Positions 1 through 18,488 of a stretch of DNA of 22,567 nt are shown one piece after another. The position numbers and the translations under genes are program-made. How positions within the stretch are numbered: position 1 is the stretch's first letter; each line of letters begins with the position of its first letter. Below the pieces are notes generated by a model that was given only the letters and a program-made list of their open reading frames with translations, searched no databases and was not told where the DNA came from. This stretch comes from Hamiltosporidium magnivora. Its lineage: Eukaryota > Microsporidia > Dubosqiidae. The stretch lies in contig PITI01000096.1 in NCBI GenBank assembly GCA_004325065.1, positions 1 through 22,567 of the forward strand, given 5' to 3'.

Positions 1-1790
1 ATCAATTTTCTATTTTGATATAATAAACTTAAGACTTTCAGGATTCAAATAAGAAATAAGAGTTTTTGATACATCGAGTCAAATAAGCATAATCTATTAA
101 ACCATAAACTTTTTTGACATCGATCATTATTGCTTTAAGACTGTTTTCATGATCTTTATTCGAGTAAATGTTCAGTAAAATCCTGCTTTTTTGCCACTTG
201 CACTCCTTTCATCGCTTCTGGCCAATTATCTGATACTACCTCTCATCTTTCACTTCAAGCTAAACCACTTTCGTTGCACATTTTCCTTCAGCTTGTACAG
301 GTTTACATACAGGTTATTGGCCATTAGTCGGAACCTCTTATTGGTGTATCTTTTGGTATCAGATAAGTTAGCTCCAGGTAAAACCATCAGCTCGAGGTCT
401 TCGTTCTAAAAAAATGACTATTACAATATTTAAAGAAACCTATGAAGAGTCATATGTTTCTTGATGTAGAAATTGTAGAGACTATCAATTTACGGAGCTT
501 TCCAATTAAGAAGCCAATTGATGATCTCTACAATTCTTCAAGTGAAAGACACGTGGCCTGATCAGTATCGGACACGAAAGGTATCAAATAATCATCATAA
601 GTGACTCGCTCATCATTTTTTCCTACATTGTAGACCAAAAACCTACAATTTAGTCCCGATTGACTATATGCTTGAAATTCACATGCTCGGATTAATCTCA
701 ATAATTTTACCTCGGAAATCTTAAACACACGGTTTTCTCTTCGGAATTTTTTCCTATTTTCGTACATTGTAAGTTTCCTCTGATAGACATTTAAAGATTC
801 ATTCTTCTTAACCAAAGTCTCAGAAAAATCGTTTGTTTTGCTTAAATCTAAATTAAACACTAGCATAATTTTTCCGAGAGTTTTTCCTGTCAATGCGCTT
901 TCTCGAGGATATCTTTGAAAGTTTTAACGCCGAAATTTTCCTCTCAATGTTTTCATTCCACATTAATTTTGATCTTCATTCCGTGCTTCCTCGTCATAGC
1001 ATGCTTGCGTCGCCTGGATAATTAGTAACACATCAGTTATCGTCATCGGGAAGTGAAATTCAGCATGTTCCCCGATAATTCAATTAATGCGGTCCAAAAC
1101 TTTACTTTCCACCAATTCACTTAAAAGCTTTCGCGTTTGTACAAATACATCTCCAATTCCTCTTCAAGAGTTACTTAATTTTACATGAACATTACTTTTT
1201 TCGAATAATATAGAGTGAAGTGTCCGTCAGAGAACATGGCTCAGTGAGACAAGTGGCGATTCTACGTCGCTCTTCATTCTCTTATTGCCCATTTCCCTTT
1301 CTGGCTCAAGTTGTGTTAATTTTTTAAGCACATCGATATCATAAGTGGGCTAAATTTCTCATTATAATACCTCAAAATTGTGGCCCAGCCATTTCTTGAA
1401 ATTATGCTGAATCTTTTCCTTATTGCAAAAAAGCAGATCGGGTCATTTCGGCTATGACAGAATCTAGTATTGAATGTAATACCATTAGCCTGCTTCCTTC
1501 TGAAAAAGCAAAATTATTGAGATTTTTTATGCAATTGGCTGGTTCACACCCAGTGGAATCGGTACAAAAGAAAACATTATGCTGTAAACTAAGCCTATTA
1601 GACTAGATTGGCAACCATTGCTTGGTAAAAGGTGTTTTTATTAGTCGATTGAGGCGAAGGTCTCTCGGGTATCGTTTCTACATCTATATTTCACGATTTA
1701 ATCTCTCTCGCACAATTCTGCGAGTTGTTTACAGCTTTTATTTCTTCTTTTTTTATATTTTCCCTGTCAACTTTTTTTCTTTCTACCCAT
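1..1790 (-). mobile_element. Decayed non-LTR (LINE) retrotransposon, 5' part, truncated by window edge
   Basis: Minus-strand translation in one frame from an ATG at 1790 gives a basic N-terminus (MGRKKKS) and then protein-like sequence cut by in-frame stops down to about 240. One piece, 893-528, is open for 121 codons. At 527-440 the frame reads NWLLNWKAP, a stop, then IDSLYNFYIKKH, which resembles the 'WKAPG.D...NF..K' block just before the reverse transcriptase of R2/R4-type LINEs. At about 400-250 comes VLPGANLSDTKRY followed by LMANNLYVNLYKL, like the 'LIPKG....YRPI' region. After a frameshift (205-38) it reads KAIMIDVKKVYGLIDYAYL, which is RT motif A, with the putative catalytic Asp at codon 121-119. 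The usual AFD and His are changed. What I see is a dead element with several stops and at least one frameshift; its endonuclease and 3' end lie beyond the window. R2/R4 affinity is inference. Confidence 0.72.
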
Positions 1791-3536
1791 TTGCAATAGT
1801 AAGTTAAAGAATATAAATTGAATTACAGACGCAATTATTTTCAGGGTTTCCTTTTTTAAATATAAGGAATATTAATTTTATAAAACGTGATTGTGATTTA
1901 ATTTATAAAATAAATTGCTCCAATGTTATTTTTTTTTCATATTAATGTTTTGCTGCAATTTATTTCGATGATTTTTCTTTTTAGAAAAAAAAAATGACAA
2001 TTTGTGAAGTTCTATAAACTTCTGCAAAGAAATGTTTTACGATTTTCTTTTATAGAATCCGTTTGACACTGCGGCACTTCAAAAAATACAAGTTGTATTT
2101 TTTGGCATACAAACATAAAATTGTTTGCTAATCTTGATAGGAAAAGTAGAATGTGTAGTATAAATATTACACATGAAGAGTTTAGAAGTGAAAAATATAT
2201 TTGATAATCACATATATACAAAATTTATAAAATACAAGAAAAGGTTTAAAATATTTTACAAATTATGTTGAAACCTGAATTATAAAACATCACATCTTTT
2301 TAAAACAGTGGCAAGTGTTATATTCGTTTTCATGACATTAACGCAGTTTTAGGGTTAACATAAATAACTGCTACCCAACACTCCATCGGTAACCCCTGCG
2401 ATACCTACATCCCAAAGCCTTTCATCTACCAGATGTGTAGAACCCATTTAATAGTCGAGTCAACTTCCCTGTGCGTGTTAATATCATTGCATGAAGTGTG
2501 ATCGAAGGCCGAAGTCCCCGGGCTCCCCGAAAACTATGCCGCATTACACTTACTCTACACTTTCTGAACCCAATGAACTTCTAGCTAAGATATATTTCAG
2601 AGAACTACATGAGGTTAAACTAGACTGTGCAATGTCATATTAACAGGTATAACGTGCTACTTAGCTTTCCTGGCTTTAAGATGTTTTCATTTTTATATCT
2701 CTCAGACGCTAACTCTTTTAACCCGAGTGAGGACGGTCAGTTTGGCATACTTTTACATGGTTAAGTTTACATTTTTAGCTGCTTTATGCAATTTAGGTAC
2801 ATAAAAAACTACAAATAGATTTGAAGAAAATGTTTCGCCATTTCGTAACCTTCTCCTTTTCGTAAAAACGTATAGAACAAGAAGATGTAGTGAGTTTTTA
2901 TTCCCTTAAAAACCAAAACAATGATCTACATACACGTTTCACATGCTCATCGCCAACCAGAAAGTTTTTTATGTTGATATCCTCTCTAACCAAGAATTAA
3001 GTTGACCAAAAATAAAATATCATTTGTGATTTATAGAGTTAAATTTTATTGATTAATCTATAAAAAACTACCAATACTACAAAAAAAAAATTCCAATAAT
3101 TTATTATTGTTTCTTAATTTATATATTTTTATTCCTTAAACGGTTTTTAACAAGATAACCCCAATTAAATATTCTAGCAGTAAATTTTAATTCTGTTGTG
3201 CCACTAGAATTTATCTTTCATTTGTTTCTTTTTTAAAAATTGTATTTTATGATTATTAGTTGATTTTCCAATAATGGTATTTTCACAAATTTTGATCTAT
3301 TTATAGTAAATTTATCAAAAAAAATATAAAATATTTTCTAAAATTTTTTTTTAAAAAAGAATGAAAAGAAAAAGATTTGCGAGAGAATTAAAAAATAAAT
3401 TAAAAGCTATAAAACTATCTAAATAGACACATTTGATAGGGTTTTACTCGACATTTATCAATACAAAACTTCTTACAATCATTTATCTATTAAATTTATC
3501 AAACCACGTGATTCGCTCCTCTAAGACCTAGAACTA
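1791..3536. other. Gene-free stretch between LINE relic and LRR pseudogene
   Basis: I see no supportable gene here. The part just upstream of the LINE relic (about 1730-2300) and the part before the LRR pseudogene (about 2960-3530) are A/T-rich with homopolymer runs. The middle contains a GC-richer island, listed separately. Short open frames are present but none has a recognisable motif or a CCC-marked start. Confidence 0.5.
2330..2760. other. GC-richer island of unknown origin
   Basis: Base composition changes clearly here: runs such as CCCCGGGCTCCCC (about 2517-2530) stand out from the surrounding AT-rich DNA. A 50-codon open frame on the plus strand runs 2491-2643, and the minus strand has a similarly short open run. 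Neither has a motif I recognise. Small hairpins are possible, for example CATCT/AGATG near 2427-2440. I could not match it to rRNA, SRP RNA or RNase P RNA by eye. It may be a fragment of an older mobile element or a structured RNA, but this is unresolved. Confidence 0.3.
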
Positions 3537-12366: not shown

Positions 12367-12372
12367 TTTATT
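12367..12372 (-). terminator. AATAAA overlapping SPT5 stop codon
   Basis: On the minus strand, GAATAAAAAATAAA contains the SPT5 stop (TAA, 12370-12368) inside an AATAAA hexamer (12372-12367). A second AATAAA follows immediately. Confidence 0.45.
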
Positions 12373-14257
12373 CTGACTTCGCTAATTTATCAACACTTAC
12401 TTCTTTTACGCTTCCATTTCCAAACCGAACAATACAAACATCTCCTTTCATACTCAAAACAATTCCTTTCTCGTTTGTTTCTACAACACAGCATCTGTCA
12501 AAAACAACAGGTGGTGCATATTCTACATCACTTATATCAAATTCTTTACCGTTTCTAGTAAAATATGTAGATTTGTACAATTTCTCTACCACGTCAAACC
12601 CATCATCAGTCTTCAAAATAATTCCTTTGTAATTATTTTCTTGGTTGGAAAATTTATTTGAATATCCCGGTGTTTGACTCCCCAAAGACTTGTTTGTCGT
12701 AGAATATCCCGGTGTTTCTCCTGTATATTTATTTGACGTAGAATATCCAGGAGTTTCCCCAAATTTATCCTTATATCGATGACCAGGTGTCTTGTATCCA
12801 GGTGTTTCACCAAACTTTTCTTTATACCGATGACCAGGTGTCTTGTATCCCGGTGTTTGTCCATACATATGGCCAGGCGTTTTATACCCCGGAGTTCCAC
12901 CATATTTTTCATTAAAAATGTAATTTTTACTTCCCTCAAATCCACCAACTTTCTGAACTTTGTCTCTTCCTATATTAACGTATTTCAAATTACTATTCAA
13001 CTGAACTCTAAAAGTATCTCCATAACAATCTTTAACCACTCCTTTATATCCTTTGAATTCTCCTTCTTGAAGTAAAACTTCTTTGTAAAGAAACGGATCT
13101 CTTTTTAACCGCTGTCTCGGTACAGAAGAATTTTTTATTACAGTTGGAACGGTATTTGCAAGTCTGAGAAAATCAATTTTTACACTTTTTTGTTCTGTAA
13201 AATTATTGAAAGCAACAACCGCTGTAGAATTAGTAACATTTAAAATTACGCCAGGTGTTTGTTCAAATACAACCAAATCGCCTTCTAAAAAATCTCTTTT
13301 TACAAACGAAGAATGAACCTGAATCAAATTGTTGCTATTTCGTTTCAAATAATTTTTATCTGTTTGATTATTATTAATTGTTCTTATAAACAATTCCTGT
13401 CCACTCACACTTTCAACAATACCAACACTGTTAGTCATTTCTCCTTCCAATACTCTTATACGTTCACCAGACATTATTCCATTTTCGCAGAACATGCTCA
13501 TTTCACTAAATGAAGGTTCAATTATTGTGAGTTGCGTGGAATCAAAAACTTTTTCTAAAAAACCGTTTTTGTAAATTTCTTTTTTATAAATAAAATAATC
13601 TTTGGTTTTAAACACTTCGTTGGGAAATTCGGTGGGATCGAACATTTTTTTTGTTGGAAGTCTTGGCACAAGTCGTATCTTTGTTCTGCCCGGTCCTTGA
13701 ACACCAATGACTTGTCCGATATCGTTTTTGTATTTTCCTTTTCCTATTCTCACATACATTCCACTTTTAAAAACAACATTTTCATCGGTTGCGGTACTGA
13801 GAGCATCTACCATCTCTTCAAGAGGAACAAGTGTAATACGAGATCTGATATGCTCTTGTATGTGTTGCTTAGAGTAGGATTCGATATAAATGTAGCCAGG
13901 AAGATTGTCGCGACAAAAAAGCGATAAAATAGGAGAATTGGCAAATTTCACCATCAGTTGCTGTAAAATACGTTTTTCTTTATGCGGTTTTACTTTTATA
14001 ACCCAAAGTTTTGGTGATGTTTTTGTGGGAAGAAGATTCTGCTGCGCCATTTCTGATTCAACATATTCTTCTTCTACTTCTCCTTCTTCTAACTCTTCAT
14101 CTACATCTTGATATTTCTTGATTAATTGATCGGTGAAATGCGTCCAGTCACGTGTAGCTACAGGTGAGGATGGTGTTGAATATGTTGATTCATACGAAGA
14201 AGAAGAAGATTCTTCGGCCTCAATATCTATAAATTCGCTATGCTTATTTTTTGGCAT
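12368..14257 (-). CDS. SPT5: Transcription elongation factor SPT5
   Basis: SPT5 binds elongating RNA polymerase with SPT4, closes its clamp and recruits processing factors. The 629-residue product has an acidic, Ser-rich N-terminus (about 1-70, EEGEVEEEYVESE), an NGN domain (about 83-152, KLWVIKVKPHKEKRI), a first KOW after it (about 164-205, SGMYVRIGKGKYKNDIGQV) and further KOW-like units (about 263-300, 325-350, 390-445). A C-terminal repeat region (about 453-535) carries six TPGY and three TPGH motifs; two 17-residue units are near identical. A last KOW-like segment follows (about 540-629). TP sites in such repeats are P-TEFb/Bur1-type kinase targets in other eukaryotes. The ATG at 14257 is supported by CCC at -17 to -15 and by the N-terminal composition. 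It is shorter than yeast Spt5 (1063 residues). Long antisense open frames across it are shadows. Confidence 0.95.
   Translation of the reverse strand: MPKNKHSEFIDIEAEESSSSSYESTYSTPSSPVATRDWTHFTDQLIKKYQDVDEELEEGEVEEEYVESEMAQQNLLPTKTSPKLWVIKVKPHKEKRILQQLMVKFANSPILSLFCRDNLPGYIYIESYSKQHIQEHIRSRITLVPLEEMVDALSTATDENVVFKSGMYVRIGKGKYKNDIGQVIGVQGPGRTKIRLVPRLPTKKMFDPTEFPNEVFKTKDYFIYKKEIYKNGFLEKVFDSTQLTIIEPSFSEMSMFCENGIMSGERIRVLEGEMTNSVGIVESVSGQELFIRTINNNQTDKNYLKRNSNNLIQVHSSFVKRDFLEGDLVVFEQTPGVILNVTNSTAVVAFNNFTEQKSVKIDFLRLANTVPTVIKNSSVPRQRLKRDPFLYKEVLLQEGEFKGYKGVVKDCYGDTFRVQLNSNLKYVNIGRDKVQKVGGFEGSKNYIFNEKYGGTPGYKTPGHMYGQTPGYKTPGHRYKEKFGETPGYKTPGHRYKDKFGETPGYSTSNKYTGETPGYSTTNKSLGSQTPGYSNKFSNQENNYKGIILKTDDGFDVVEKLYKSTYFTRNGKEFDISDVEYAPPVVFDRCCVVETNEKGIVLSMKGDVCIVRFGNGSVKEVSVDKLAKSE
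12650..12900 (-). repeat. Coding tandem repeat, SPT5 CTR
   Basis: Degenerate repeats encode TPGY/TPGH heptad-like units. The cleanest pair has a 51-bp period (for example GATGACCAGGTGTCTTGTAT at 12778 and 12829), encoding 17 residues. The remaining units are shorter and diverged. Every unit keeps Thr-Pro-Gly, which indicates selection on the protein. Confidence 0.85.
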
Positions 14258-14592: not shown

Positions 14593-15323
14593 TTTCTAGA
14601 TATTTTAAATAACACTACTACTTATATTTAAGTGTTAATTAAGTTAAGTCTTTGAATATTTTATTTTAAACAGCTAAAAAATTTAAATATTTTTTAGAAA
14701 AAAAATGCATAAAATTAAATTCAGAGAAGAAAGGAGAAGAAGACAACAAAAATCAATAAAAATATTTTTTATATATTTGGAAAAAAAAAATTTAATGTAG
14801 CAAATAAAAAAATTAGAAATAAGGAGGAATGTAAATAATTAAATTGGATGAAATTTAACCCCTAAAAATTGCTTTGAATTTTTGAAGCAGAAAACTTAGA
14901 AAATTTATATTATTTATAAAGATATTACTGTAATGGTAATATCTTTTCTGCATATTTGTGTTTTTTGCAAATATTTGAGTAATTAGAGGAATATTACGGA
15001 ATCGTGATTTACTTTTGTCACATAGTTATGTTGCAATCAAATACCATAAGATGTATCTTAAAAAACTTCAAATACCAGTAAGAATAGAAGCATATATTTA
15101 GTCAATAGTACTCAAAAAGACAGTCAAAATTATTTCTTCTGAAGCAGAAGAAAATTATAGACAAAATAAATGATGAATAAATACAGTAAAATAAATAAAT
15201 ATATTAAAGTGATATAGGATATTCCTAATATCAACTTGTATGCAACAAAGTATTTCGATTATTAAAAATTCTTCTAAAATAAACTAAATATTTGATAAAA
15301 TAGCAAATATTTACAATAATTTT
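14593..15323. other. Gene-free A/T-rich stretch upstream of SPT5
   Basis: No coding frame is supported. The only clear structure is an 11-bp inverted repeat, AAAGATATTAC (14918-14928) with GTAATATCTTT (14936-14946) and a 7-base loop. Confidence 0.45.
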
Positions 15324-15338
15324 CATATAATTAATTAT
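15324..15338. repeat. Target-site duplication, SINE 3' side
   Basis: CATATAATTAATTAT matches 14 of 15 bases with 15567-15581. It directly abuts the A-rich tail of the SINE. Confidence 0.65.
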
Positions 15339-15566
15339 TTTTAATTTAGTTAATAGCTCGCTCCTTCCCTATGGATGGAACACAATCCAACGATGAATCA
15401 TAGCTTCACCAAGTTATAGGCGTCCCAAAGACAATTTTCTTTTGATTGGTTAGGTTGTCAGTCTTACGCAAACTTTCCTAACGAAAGATAGAGAGTGCAC
15501 CAACCGGGGATCTAACACGTCCTTCTGAATTAAATTCCGATATACTCACCACTAGACCATTGACGC
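15339..15566 (-). mobile_element. tRNA-derived SINE
   Basis: This 228-bp minus-strand element is GC-richer than its surroundings. Its first 70 bases (15566-15497) fold as a tRNA. Next comes an unrelated body of about 135 bases (to about 15361), then an A-rich tail ending AAATTAAAA at 15339. It is flanked exactly at both ends by 15-base direct repeats with one mismatch (15324-15338 and 15567-15581), the hallmark of target-primed reverse transcription. A box-A-like sequence TGGTCTAGTGG (15559-15549) and a box-B-like sequence TGTTAGATCCC (15517-15507) suit RNA polymerase III. No minus-strand TTTT occurs inside the element; the first run is at 15300-15297, beyond the 3' duplication. Mobilisation by a LINE is expected for this class. 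Only one copy is in the window, so the family status rests on structure. Confidence 0.72.
15497..15566 (-). pseudogene. tRNA-like head of the SINE (anticodon position UUA)
   Basis: Acceptor stem GCGTCAA pairs with TTGGTGC over all seven positions (two G-U pairs). The D arm is GTCTAGTGGTGAGTAT. The anticodon stem TCGGA/TCAGA has four of five pairs and a loop ATTTAAT, placing TTA at positions 34-36, which would read the stop codon UAA. The T arm ACGTG-TTAGATC-CCCGG has two mismatches. The D arm and box sequences look most like Asp, Glu or Gln tRNAs. With a weak T arm and a three-base variable loop it is unlikely to be a working tRNA. Confidence 0.6.
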
Positions 15567-15581
15567 CATAAAATTAATTAT
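15567..15581. repeat. Target-site duplication, SINE 5' side
   Basis: CATAAAATTAATTAT matches 15324-15338 in 14 of 15 bases and ends exactly at the first base of the tRNA-like head. Confidence 0.65.
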
Positions 15582-16591
15582 AGAGAAACAAAATGCATAT
15601 AAATATATACAACTTAATAATATAAATATTTTTACATATATTTAATTATTTTTCCTGTGAGTTTTGTCATATAAAAAAGATTTGGGTAATGCTTTATATT
15701 ACTTGTTGGATACATAATTAATACTATATTTATCATTAAGGCTGTATTTATAAAAACTCAATATCAAGAGTAATAAATTTCTTTACTAATAACTCTAAAA
15801 ATTCAAAAATTAAGCTTTTCTTAAAAGCCTACTTGTTAAAAAAAATAAAACTGAATTAAAAATTCAATCCATATAAAAATTTAATAATAATATTCATATG
15901 CGAATAAAATGAATAAGAAACTACTTTTTCACAAATCTTGTAAGAGAATCTATCTCTGAAAAAGAGTAAAGACTAAAATAAAATAATTTAAATCTTCGCT
16001 ATTTACCGGTTGTTTTAAACGTATTTCCTACTTTATATGATTAAAATATACAAGTAAGTGAATTTTAGATTAAAAAAAACAAAACTTTTTTTTGAAAAAT
16101 ATTTTAGTATCTGAAAATAAATCATCCGATTAAAAATCCTATATTTTAAATAATTAAATTCATTGAATTGATTACAAATTAGATTAATTTCAAATTGAAT
16201 CAAATTTAAGATATTATAATACTTTGGATTAAAGTTTTAAAGAAATTTTTATCTGTAAAAATCATGACTTATTGATTTAATAAAATTGATTAGCAAATAA
16301 ATAAATTTACTTTTTAAATATGTAAACATCCTTAAATATTTCATTAAGAATAAAGCAGTCTTTAAATTATTTTCATATCGTTTAATCTTTAAAATACAAT
16401 TAAAACTACAAATTAGATAGATAGATATATATTAAATATAATGAAATTGCACAATAAATTAGGAAAGTATTATACAAATCTCTGATATAAAAATCATAAG
16501 AAAGATAAATTTTGTTTATATAAAAAGACGAAAATAATATAGAATTTATATAAATTTATAAAAACCTGGTATAAATTTATAAATTTATTTC
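15582..16591. other. Gene-free A/T-rich stretch
   Basis: I see no coding frame, RNA gene or clear repeat, only A/T-rich sequence with a few TATAAATTTATAA-like words near 16540-16590. Confidence 0.45.
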
Positions 16592-16958: not shown

Positions 16959-18488
16959 TTATGTCTTAGAAATAATACGAGGATTAAATTTTAAAGCAAA
17001 CAGTCCAATCAAACAAGCAAATAACGAAGAAATAAAAACACGTTTTCTCCAAAAGAATTGCACACAAATTTTAGAAATAAGTCTGAATTCTACATACCAA
17101 ACAAGTAGATATGCCTTTGGTTCGTATTTCATAATTCTTGAAATATAATTTAAAGCTTTTCTAACATCTTTTTCACATCCAAGTCCATTTTCGTACATAT
17201 AAGCCACCGAATAGAAACCTTCTGGGTCATCAAGAAGAGAAGCAGACAAATAAATAGAAAAACTACTCGTATAAGATTTTTCTACACCGATTCCATAAAA
17301 ATAGCAATCTCCCAATTTCACCAAATTATTTTTGTGTCCCATTTGTGCCAATCGATGATTTAAATCAAAAATTATTTTATTCTGATTTTCTATCAATCCA
17401 CTATGATTGTAAAGTAGAAACAATGCATTCTGCATAGAATGTATCGAACCCATTTCACCAGCAAACAACAAATACATCAAAGATGATTTATATTTTCTTT
17501 CTACAAATCTTTTTTCTGCTTTGTTTTGTATTTCTACAAGGTCTGTGCTGTAATCACAGACAGAACAAAGATATTGAAGAGAAACTCTGTAATTCTTAGA
17601 TTGATACAATTTCAAAGCATAGCTATAAATTGCAGGTAAAAAACCTTTATTTGCTGCATTTAATAAATAAACCAATCCCATTTCTTCAACCATATAAACA
17701 TCTTTAAAAAATTTATAAAGATTGTAATCTGCCTCAGCCAATCCTCTTTTAGAAGCTTCTTCAAAATACGCTTTTGCCGCCAAAAGATCGTTGTGACTTT
17801 CATGTAAAAATATTAAACCGAGTCCATTGTAACAGACAGGATCCTGTTTGTTTGCCCCCTCCATAAAATAATGCATCGCTGTAGTAAAACATTTTTCAAC
17901 TCCTTTCCCTTCATAATACAACATTCCAAGAATTCCCATCGCTTTTTGATTTCCTCTTTCACTCAAAATTTTAAGAACTTTTAAATATTTTTCTGGTTCG
18001 ATATGTCCACCTTTAATAAGTTTAAGAAAATTTGTTTCTGCTTTCGAATCCCCTGAACCAATAAGATACGTAAGGTGCTCAATTGTTTCGTACAAATATT
18101 TTTCTTTTTTTATTTTTTTAAAATGTCTCTTGGATTTTATGTCACTTCTTCTCTTTTCAAACACTTCTTTAACTTTTTCAGCAACTTTTATTGCCAAATC
18201 TGCTGTTTCCTTAAAATCAGAATTCAAACCAAATGAAAAGAACGAATTGTGCGAAAATATTATTTTATAAAAGTCTTTACTACTTGTTTCACCTGCAATC
18301 AACCTAAAGAATGCTTCTTCTTGTTTCCCGTAAAATACTCTGTAAATAAAATAGAGATATATTTGATCGTCTGGTTTTCCTAATGATAAAGCCATTTCTT
18401 CTGCTTTTTTTATATTACATTCTTCAAATAATATTTCTTCAATTTCATTTGTTCGTAATATATTAAACAGAAATAAAAAAAATATCAT
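16959..18488 (-). CDS. HRD3: HRD3/SEL1L-like ERAD adaptor with SEL1 repeats
   Basis: Hrd3/SEL1L is the luminal partner of the HRD1 ubiquitin ligase and hands misfolded ER proteins to it. The product from the ATG at 18488 has 509 residues: a short hydrophobic signal-like start MIFFLFLFNILR, a helical N-terminal half, clear SEL1 repeats (about 175-250, GILGMLYYEGKGVEK and AAKAYFEEASKRGLAEADY; about 385-450, NLVKLGDCYFYGIGVEKSY and AYMYENGLGCEKDVRKAL) and a single C-terminal membrane segment (about 483-500, VFISSLFACLIGLFALKF). This layout matches Hrd3. I chose 18488 because CCC (-16 to -14) and AAATTT (18495-18500) precede it and the signal sequence then lies at the N-terminus. A longer frame to 18599 starts only at TTG. 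It is shorter than yeast Hrd3 (833 residues). A generic SEL1-repeat protein is the alternative. It diverges from the orphan gene 261 bp away. Confidence 0.82.
   Translation of the reverse strand: MIFFLFLFNILRTNEIEEILFEECNIKKAEEMALSLGKPDDQIYLYFIYRVFYGKQEEAFFRLIAGETSSKDFYKIIFSHNSFFSFGLNSDFKETADLAIKVAEKVKEVFEKRRSDIKSKRHFKKIKKEKYLYETIEHLTYLIGSGDSKAETNFLKLIKGGHIEPEKYLKVLKILSERGNQKAMGILGMLYYEGKGVEKCFTTAMHYFMEGANKQDPVCYNGLGLIFLHESHNDLLAAKAYFEEASKRGLAEADYNLYKFFKDVYMVEEMGLVYLLNAANKGFLPAIYSYALKLYQSKNYRVSLQYLCSVCDYSTDLVEIQNKAEKRFVERKYKSSLMYLLFAGEMGSIHSMQNALFLLYNHSGLIENQNKIIFDLNHRLAQMGHKNNLVKLGDCYFYGIGVEKSYTSSFSIYLSASLLDDPEGFYSVAYMYENGLGCEKDVRKALNYISRIMKYEPKAYLLVWYVEFRLISKICVQFFWRKRVFISSLFACLIGLFALKFNPRIISKT

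What the first reader, a model, noticed from the sequence alone, without database searches (positions are those of the whole stretch)
15324..15581. A tRNA-derived SINE with intact target-site duplications
All four SINE hallmarks coincide to the base on the minus strand: a tRNA-like head starting right after one 15-base repeat, box-A and box-B-like sequences, an unrelated body, and an A-rich tail ending right before the second repeat (14/15 identical). SINEs are rarely discussed in microsporidia. The fresh duplications suggest fairly recent movement.
Basis: partly seen in the sequence, partly recalled or inferred. Interest (0 to 1): 0.78.

Follow-up and report, generated by a model that had tools for sequence, protein, structure and literature searches.

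The report
A tRNA-Glu-derived SINE family in microsporidia
The stretch is one of about seventy scattered copies of a small jumping element whose front part comes from the parasite's own glutamate transfer-RNA gene; such elements are common in other organisms but seem little described in microsporidia.

Summary
Confirmed. The genome search it asked for shows a dispersed family: 70 insertion sites were analysed, 38 full length and 32 5'-truncated, with common ends and different flanks. Target-site duplications far exceed a permuted control (score 9 or more: 22 of 70 against 1.6 expected). One truncated copy has a paralogous empty site with a single copy of its 13-bp target. The head matches the genome's own tRNA-Glu(UUC) gene at 80.8% over 78 bases. 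Best explanation: RNA-mediated copying by target-primed reverse transcription. Pol III transcription and a LINE partner are inferred; no partner was found. "Recent movement" holds only relative to the family: this copy is joint closest to the consensus (7.1%, median 16.4%), but its B box is altered and no close paralogues were seen. It is a new member of a known kind. In the microsporidian papers whose text I searched, SINEs appear once, as a line in a Nosema bombycis repeat table.

The parts
15567..15581 (-). target-site duplication at the 5' (head) end
   Evidence: 14/15 identical to 15324-15338; score 12, reached in 0.12% of permuted pairs
15496..15566 (-). tRNA-Glu-derived head
   Evidence: RF00005, 20.1 bits, below cut-off; family consensus 80.8% identical to the genome's tRNA-Glu(TTC) gene over 78 bases
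15549..15559 (-). A-box-like TGGTCTAGTGG
   Evidence: position; box motif itself recalled
15507..15517 (-). B-box-like TGTTAGATCCC, altered at two positions relative to the family consensus
   Evidence: box motif itself recalled
15473..15486 (-). small hairpin region after the head (consensus CTTTCGTTCGGAAAG)
   Evidence: -3.7 kcal/mol for the consensus; function unknown
15352..15495 (-). tRNA-unrelated body ending in GAGCGAGCTAT
   Evidence: shared by the family; no Rfam match other than the tRNA head at E up to 10 in 15200-15700
15339..15351 (-). A-rich tail (TAACTAAATTAAAA-type; family tail mostly TAAA units)
15324..15338 (-). target-site duplication at the 3' (tail) end

Best explanation
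A tRNA-Glu-derived SINE family of this microsporidian, copied through RNA by target-primed reverse transcription. Shown: dispersed copies with a common 5' end at tRNA position 1 and a common 3' end, a head closest to the genome's own tRNA-Glu gene, target-site duplications, 5' truncation, a short A or TAAA tail, and one paralogous empty site. Inferred: transcription by RNA polymerase III from the internal A and B boxes; nicking (context T|A), tail annealing and reverse transcription by the enzymes of a LINE. The copy in the window is intergenic and, with its altered B box, probably not transcribed now.
For: Family: 40 scored of 86 candidates in the own genome; motif searches gave 51, 43 and 53 places against 6, 0 and 0 for reversed motifs; 70 sites analysed. 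Ends: 34 of 70 start at model position 3-5, 55 of 70 end at 226-229. Duplications: score 9 or more at 22 of 70 against 1.6 expected, 12 or more at 12 of 70 against 0.08, in full-length (15 of 38) and truncated copies (7 of 32). Empty site: L078 on C152 against C232. Head: tRNA-Glu(TTC) E 3.8e-15, next tRNA-Gly(GCC) 2e-5. Reverse transcriptases of LINE type exist, one in an open frame of 914 codons.
Against: No partner LINE: no profile match below E 2.2 in the 30 reverse-transcriptase loci held, which carry at most 1.5 kb of flank and include LTR-type elements. Clear duplications are missing at 48 of 70 sites, read here as decay. Only 2 of 40 loci scanned have heads above the tRNA gathering score, and only 3 of 38 full-length copies keep both a strict A box and a core B box. 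The empty site is paralogous, not allelic; none is held for the window copy. No transcript data.
Confidence: 0.94

Rival explanations
1. A SINE that entered by horizontal transfer from an animal host instead of arising in the microsporidian lineage.
For: Exchange of other transposons between microsporidia and animals is in print (PMC4202319, passages).
Against: Among the 16 tRNA genes recovered the own tRNA-Glu is by far the closest to the head, and the local match runs a few bases past the tRNA into its trailer. No animal tRNA or genome was compared.
Confidence: 0.06
2. A tRNA-headed non-autonomous element moved by an LTR retrotransposon's enzymes.
For: Such small-RNA-derived LTR elements are described elsewhere (PMC10886601, listing and start of abstract only); an LTR-type polyprotein is present here (L049).
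Against: No terminal repeats inside the copies, duplications of variable length (9-21), 5' truncation in 32 of 70 and A or TAAA tails fit LINE-type priming.
Confidence: 0.02
3. A decayed tRNA gene or tRNA pseudogene with chance repeats in A+T-rich sequence.
For: Weak tRNA score; 20.5% G+C flanks.
Against: The 228-bp unit, not only the tRNA part, recurs at 70 sites.
Confidence: 0.01
4. A DNA transposon derivative (MITE) or a segmental repeat.
For: Multi-copy and short, with direct repeats.
Against: 5' truncation with a fixed 3' end and variable duplication lengths are not expected of cut-and-paste elements (recalled); flanks are unrelated apart from duplicate contigs.
Confidence: 0.01

Closest known systems
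Fungal tRNA-derived SINEs: MgSINE (Magnaporthe grisea, 472 bp, about 100 copies), Foxy (Fusarium oxysporum, about 160 copies), AfuSINE2 (Aspergillus fumigatus) (figures from PMC5063351, passages and abstract)
   Same: tRNA-like head, unrelated body, duplications, tens to low hundreds of copies
   Different: Other tRNA origins where stated and other bodies; no sequence comparison was made here
SINE class in the Nosema bombycis repeat table (PMC3614468, passages: 28,669 bp, 0.18%)
   Same: SINEs reported in a microsporidian
   Different: Only a class total in the passages I saw; no family, structure or tRNA origin; sequence not compared
tRNA-derived SINEs of animals and plants in general (recalled)
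   Same: Architecture and inferred copying by LINE enzymes
   Different: Small copy number and an unidentified LINE partner here

Membership tests
tRNA-derived SINE | Short (under about 700 bp), non-coding, dispersed, multi-copy | tested here: met
   228 bp; 70 sites
tRNA-derived SINE | 5' head derived from a tRNA | tested here: met
   80.8% to tRNA-Glu(TTC) over 78 bases; RF00005 match below cut-off in the window copy, above it in 2 of 40 loci scanned
tRNA-derived SINE | Internal Pol III promoter (A and B boxes) | tested here: inconclusive
   Consensus has an A box matching the strict motif and a B box one base off the canonical motif; strict A box in 10 of 38, core B box in 11 of 38, both in 3 of 38 full-length copies. 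Transcription not testable
tRNA-derived SINE | Target-site duplications of variable length | tested here: met
   22 of 70 at score 9 or more against 1.6 expected; lengths 9-21
tRNA-derived SINE | A-rich or simple-repeat 3' tail | tested here: met
   TAAA type 40, run of A 14, unassigned 16 of 70
tRNA-derived SINE | Insertion into a pre-existing empty site | tested here: met
   One site, paralogous: C152 against C232; no empty site found for the window copy
tRNA-derived SINE | Partner LINE, often sharing the 3' end | tested here: inconclusive
   LINE-type reverse transcriptases present; no shared 3' end found in 30 loci held
tRNA-derived SINE | Pol III transcript copied into cDNA | not testable with these tools
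   No RNA data

The most novel reading that the evidence does not exclude
A SINE family that arose inside Microsporidia from the parasite's own tRNA-Glu gene and changed its tail from a run of A to TAAA units while spreading; it would be the first SINE of the phylum described in detail.
Probability: 0.6. Interest if true: 0.5.

Novelty: new member of a known kind. Interest (0 to 1): 0.42.

Why it matters
Microsporidia are the standard case of genome reduction, yet this one sustained a SINE family, which needs a tRNA-type source gene and reverse transcriptase working in trans. SINE insertions are good historical markers, so the family could help with relationships, haplotype history and ploidy in a group where these are hard to settle. 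It also makes a directly testable question of whether such families exist, unnoticed, in other large microsporidian genomes.

Tried and rejected
Not significant: a cluster of truncation points beside a small hairpin (9 of 32 truncated copies start at 94-107; scan P 0.087). Absence of TTTT in the consensus as a sign of Pol III constraint: 1567 of 5000 shuffles lack it too. Partner LINE through a shared 3' end: the 18 tail-motif places fetched beyond one search were all SINE copies, and no match below E 2.2 was found in 30 reverse-transcriptase loci; by eye, L048, L054, L051, L077 and L053 share a different 3' end. Two exact patterns in the viral collection: no match. Relatives of this genome are not held, so spread among microsporidia was not tested. 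A microsporidian rRNA family search did not complete.

Rows dropped before the count of 70: of 81 profile hits, 7 with duplicate flanks (5 copies and one secondary hit on the near-identical contig pairs, and one place fetched twice), the tRNA genes L035 and L043, and two secondary partial hits in L018 and L022. Places on contigs that looked like duplicates by equal scores or hits (C3, C5, C7, C9, C56, C172 and a second place on C166) were not fetched. Of 22 duplications at score 9 or more, four (L106, L108, L113, L117) were left out of the insertion-context count of 18. Searches ended with a script error after printing the results cited.

Full report
The observation. On the minus strand the window holds ATAATTAATTTTATG (15581-15567), a 228-bp element (15566-15339) and ATAATTAATTATATG (15338-15324); the 15-mers agree at 14 positions. 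The element is 40.8% G+C between flanks of 20.5%. Rfam's tRNA model matches its first 71 bases from end to end with 20.1 bits, below the cut-off of 29. The element lies between an SPT5-like gene (12368-14257, minus) and a Sel1-repeat gene (16959-18488, minus).

The family. A search of the window's own assembly (10.74 Mb, 644 contigs) gave 40 scored matches out of 86 candidates, 77-88% identical apart from the window itself. Three motif searches with up to three mismatches gave 51, 43 and 53 places against 6, 0 and 0 for the reversed motifs. The fetched loci were scanned with a profile built from the 25 aligned copies. After the exclusions listed under Tried and rejected, 70 insertion sites remained. 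38 of 70 start within the first nine model positions and 32 of 70 are 5'-truncated; 55 of 70 end at model position 226-229. With 1601 bp of window sequence as query, the 39 other SINE matches listed lie inside 15316-15606 (40 of 142 candidates scored). A few run up to 40 bases past the head at about 77% identity. One other match marks a separate repeat at 15039-15142.

Duplications. At each site I scored the best ungapped repeat between left and right flank and compared it with permuted pairs. Scores of 9 or more occur at 22 of 70 sites against 1.6 expected, and of 12 or more at 12 of 70 against 0.08. The window copy scores 12. 48 of 70 sites show no clear duplication, as decay would give but also as a weak signal would. 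At the 18 sites kept for context, T precedes the duplication in 12 and A begins it in 15, against 89 and 106 of 219 permuted pairs scoring 8 or more. This suggests a T|A nick, but the start is partly confounded with homology to the tail.

The empty site. The left flank of the truncated copy on C152 (L078) matches C232 at 77% over its positions 43-480. The C232 stretch (L123) has no SINE (best profile E 1.7) and holds AAAGTCAAAGAA once, where C152 has AAAGTCAAAGAAT on both sides of the element. With the element and one repeat taken out, the alignment score rises from 758 to 824.5 and 707 of 872 aligned bases agree. The alignment has small gaps near the site. This is direct evidence of insertion with duplication, by a paralogue. 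No empty site for the window copy was found, nor a second contig for the flank of L002.

Origin of the head. ARAGORN tRNA genes in the 17 loci found with the Rfam tRNA model (63 of 817 candidates scored, so the tRNA set is partial). The 17th locus is a SINE head itself (L047, 39.7 bits). tRNA-Glu(TTC) is by far the closest to the consensus: 80.8% over 78 bases, E 3.8e-15; the next is tRNA-Gly(GCC), E 2e-5. The match includes both sides of the acceptor stem and a few bases of the trailer. Of 40 loci scanned, 2 have heads above the tRNA gathering score.

Age. The window copy differs from the consensus at 7.1% of positions, tied with one truncated copy as the lowest of the family; the median is 16.4% over the 68 copies with more than 100 compared positions. 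The closest paralogous pairs over 110 or more columns differ by 11%. Five near-identical contig pairs (99.3-100%) carry the SINE on both members. Movement is therefore old relative to these differences in the contigs held; younger copies could be missing from the assembly. The B box of the window copy has two changes. Tails are of TAAA type in 40, run of A in 14 and unassigned in 16 of 70 copies, with median divergence 0.145, 0.180 and 0.193. This hints at a change of tail with time, but the consensus leans towards the larger group.

Mechanism. Target-primed reverse transcription explains variable duplications, 5' truncation, a fixed 3' end and a simple tail. One LINE-type open frame of 914 codons has RVT_1 (1.7e-31) and a weak endonuclease match (2.9e-4, below cut-off), and its closest solved relatives are R2 proteins. 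None of the 30 reverse-transcriptase loci held shares the SINE body (best E 2.2), so the partner is unknown. Pol III transcription rests on the boxes alone: strict A box in 10, core B box in 11 and both in 3 of 38 full-length copies.

Literature. Nine searches were made in open-access papers. I searched the main text of 11 papers on microsporidia (or comparing them) for the word: it is absent from PMC4202319, PMC3486916, PMC4435813, PMC10845963, PMC7313128, PMC13174016, PMC10989860, PMC8206274, PMC10245619 and PMC10759460 and present once in PMC3614468, in the repeat table of Nosema bombycis. I saw counts and passages only, no supplements and no subscription papers. Fungal SINEs are well known (PMC5063351, passages).

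Verdict. Observation and reading both hold. By design it is an ordinary SINE; its place, a microsporidian genome, makes it worth reporting.

Noticed in passing
window 1-1396: Decayed relative of the L055/L063/L064/L069/L073 reverse-transcriptase repeat family (65-78% identity).
   Followed up: partly
window 2248-2984: Another dispersed repeat, matching parts of at least ten fetched loci (L008, L010, L011, L033, L036, L037, L043, L044, L046, L114; 66-86%).
   Followed up: no
window 15039-15142: Short repeat fragment (plus strand) 200 bp from the SINE tail, also in L018, L027 and L044; by eye it resembles the end of the L055/L073 reverse-transcriptase repeat.
   Followed up: partly
L048 130-2871 (C233): Open 914-codon non-LTR retrotransposon frame with RVT_1 and a weak endonuclease match; a 91.7% identical partial copy lies in L054.
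   Followed up: partly
L048, L054, L051, L077, L053 downstream ends: By eye these non-LTR elements share a 3' end around TATTTAAATAAAAT..TTTTCC(C)TAA, with no A tail, unlike the SINE.
   Followed up: no
L006/L007, L011/L012, L014/L015, L016/L017, L022/L023: Contig pairs 99.3-100% identical around SINE copies, likely uncollapsed haplotypes or duplicates in the assembly.
   Followed up: partly
L078 184-257: A stretch of about 70 bases in this SINE's flank recurs widely: 38 further matches at 71-91% were listed, most of them there (40 of 95 candidates scored).
   Followed up: no
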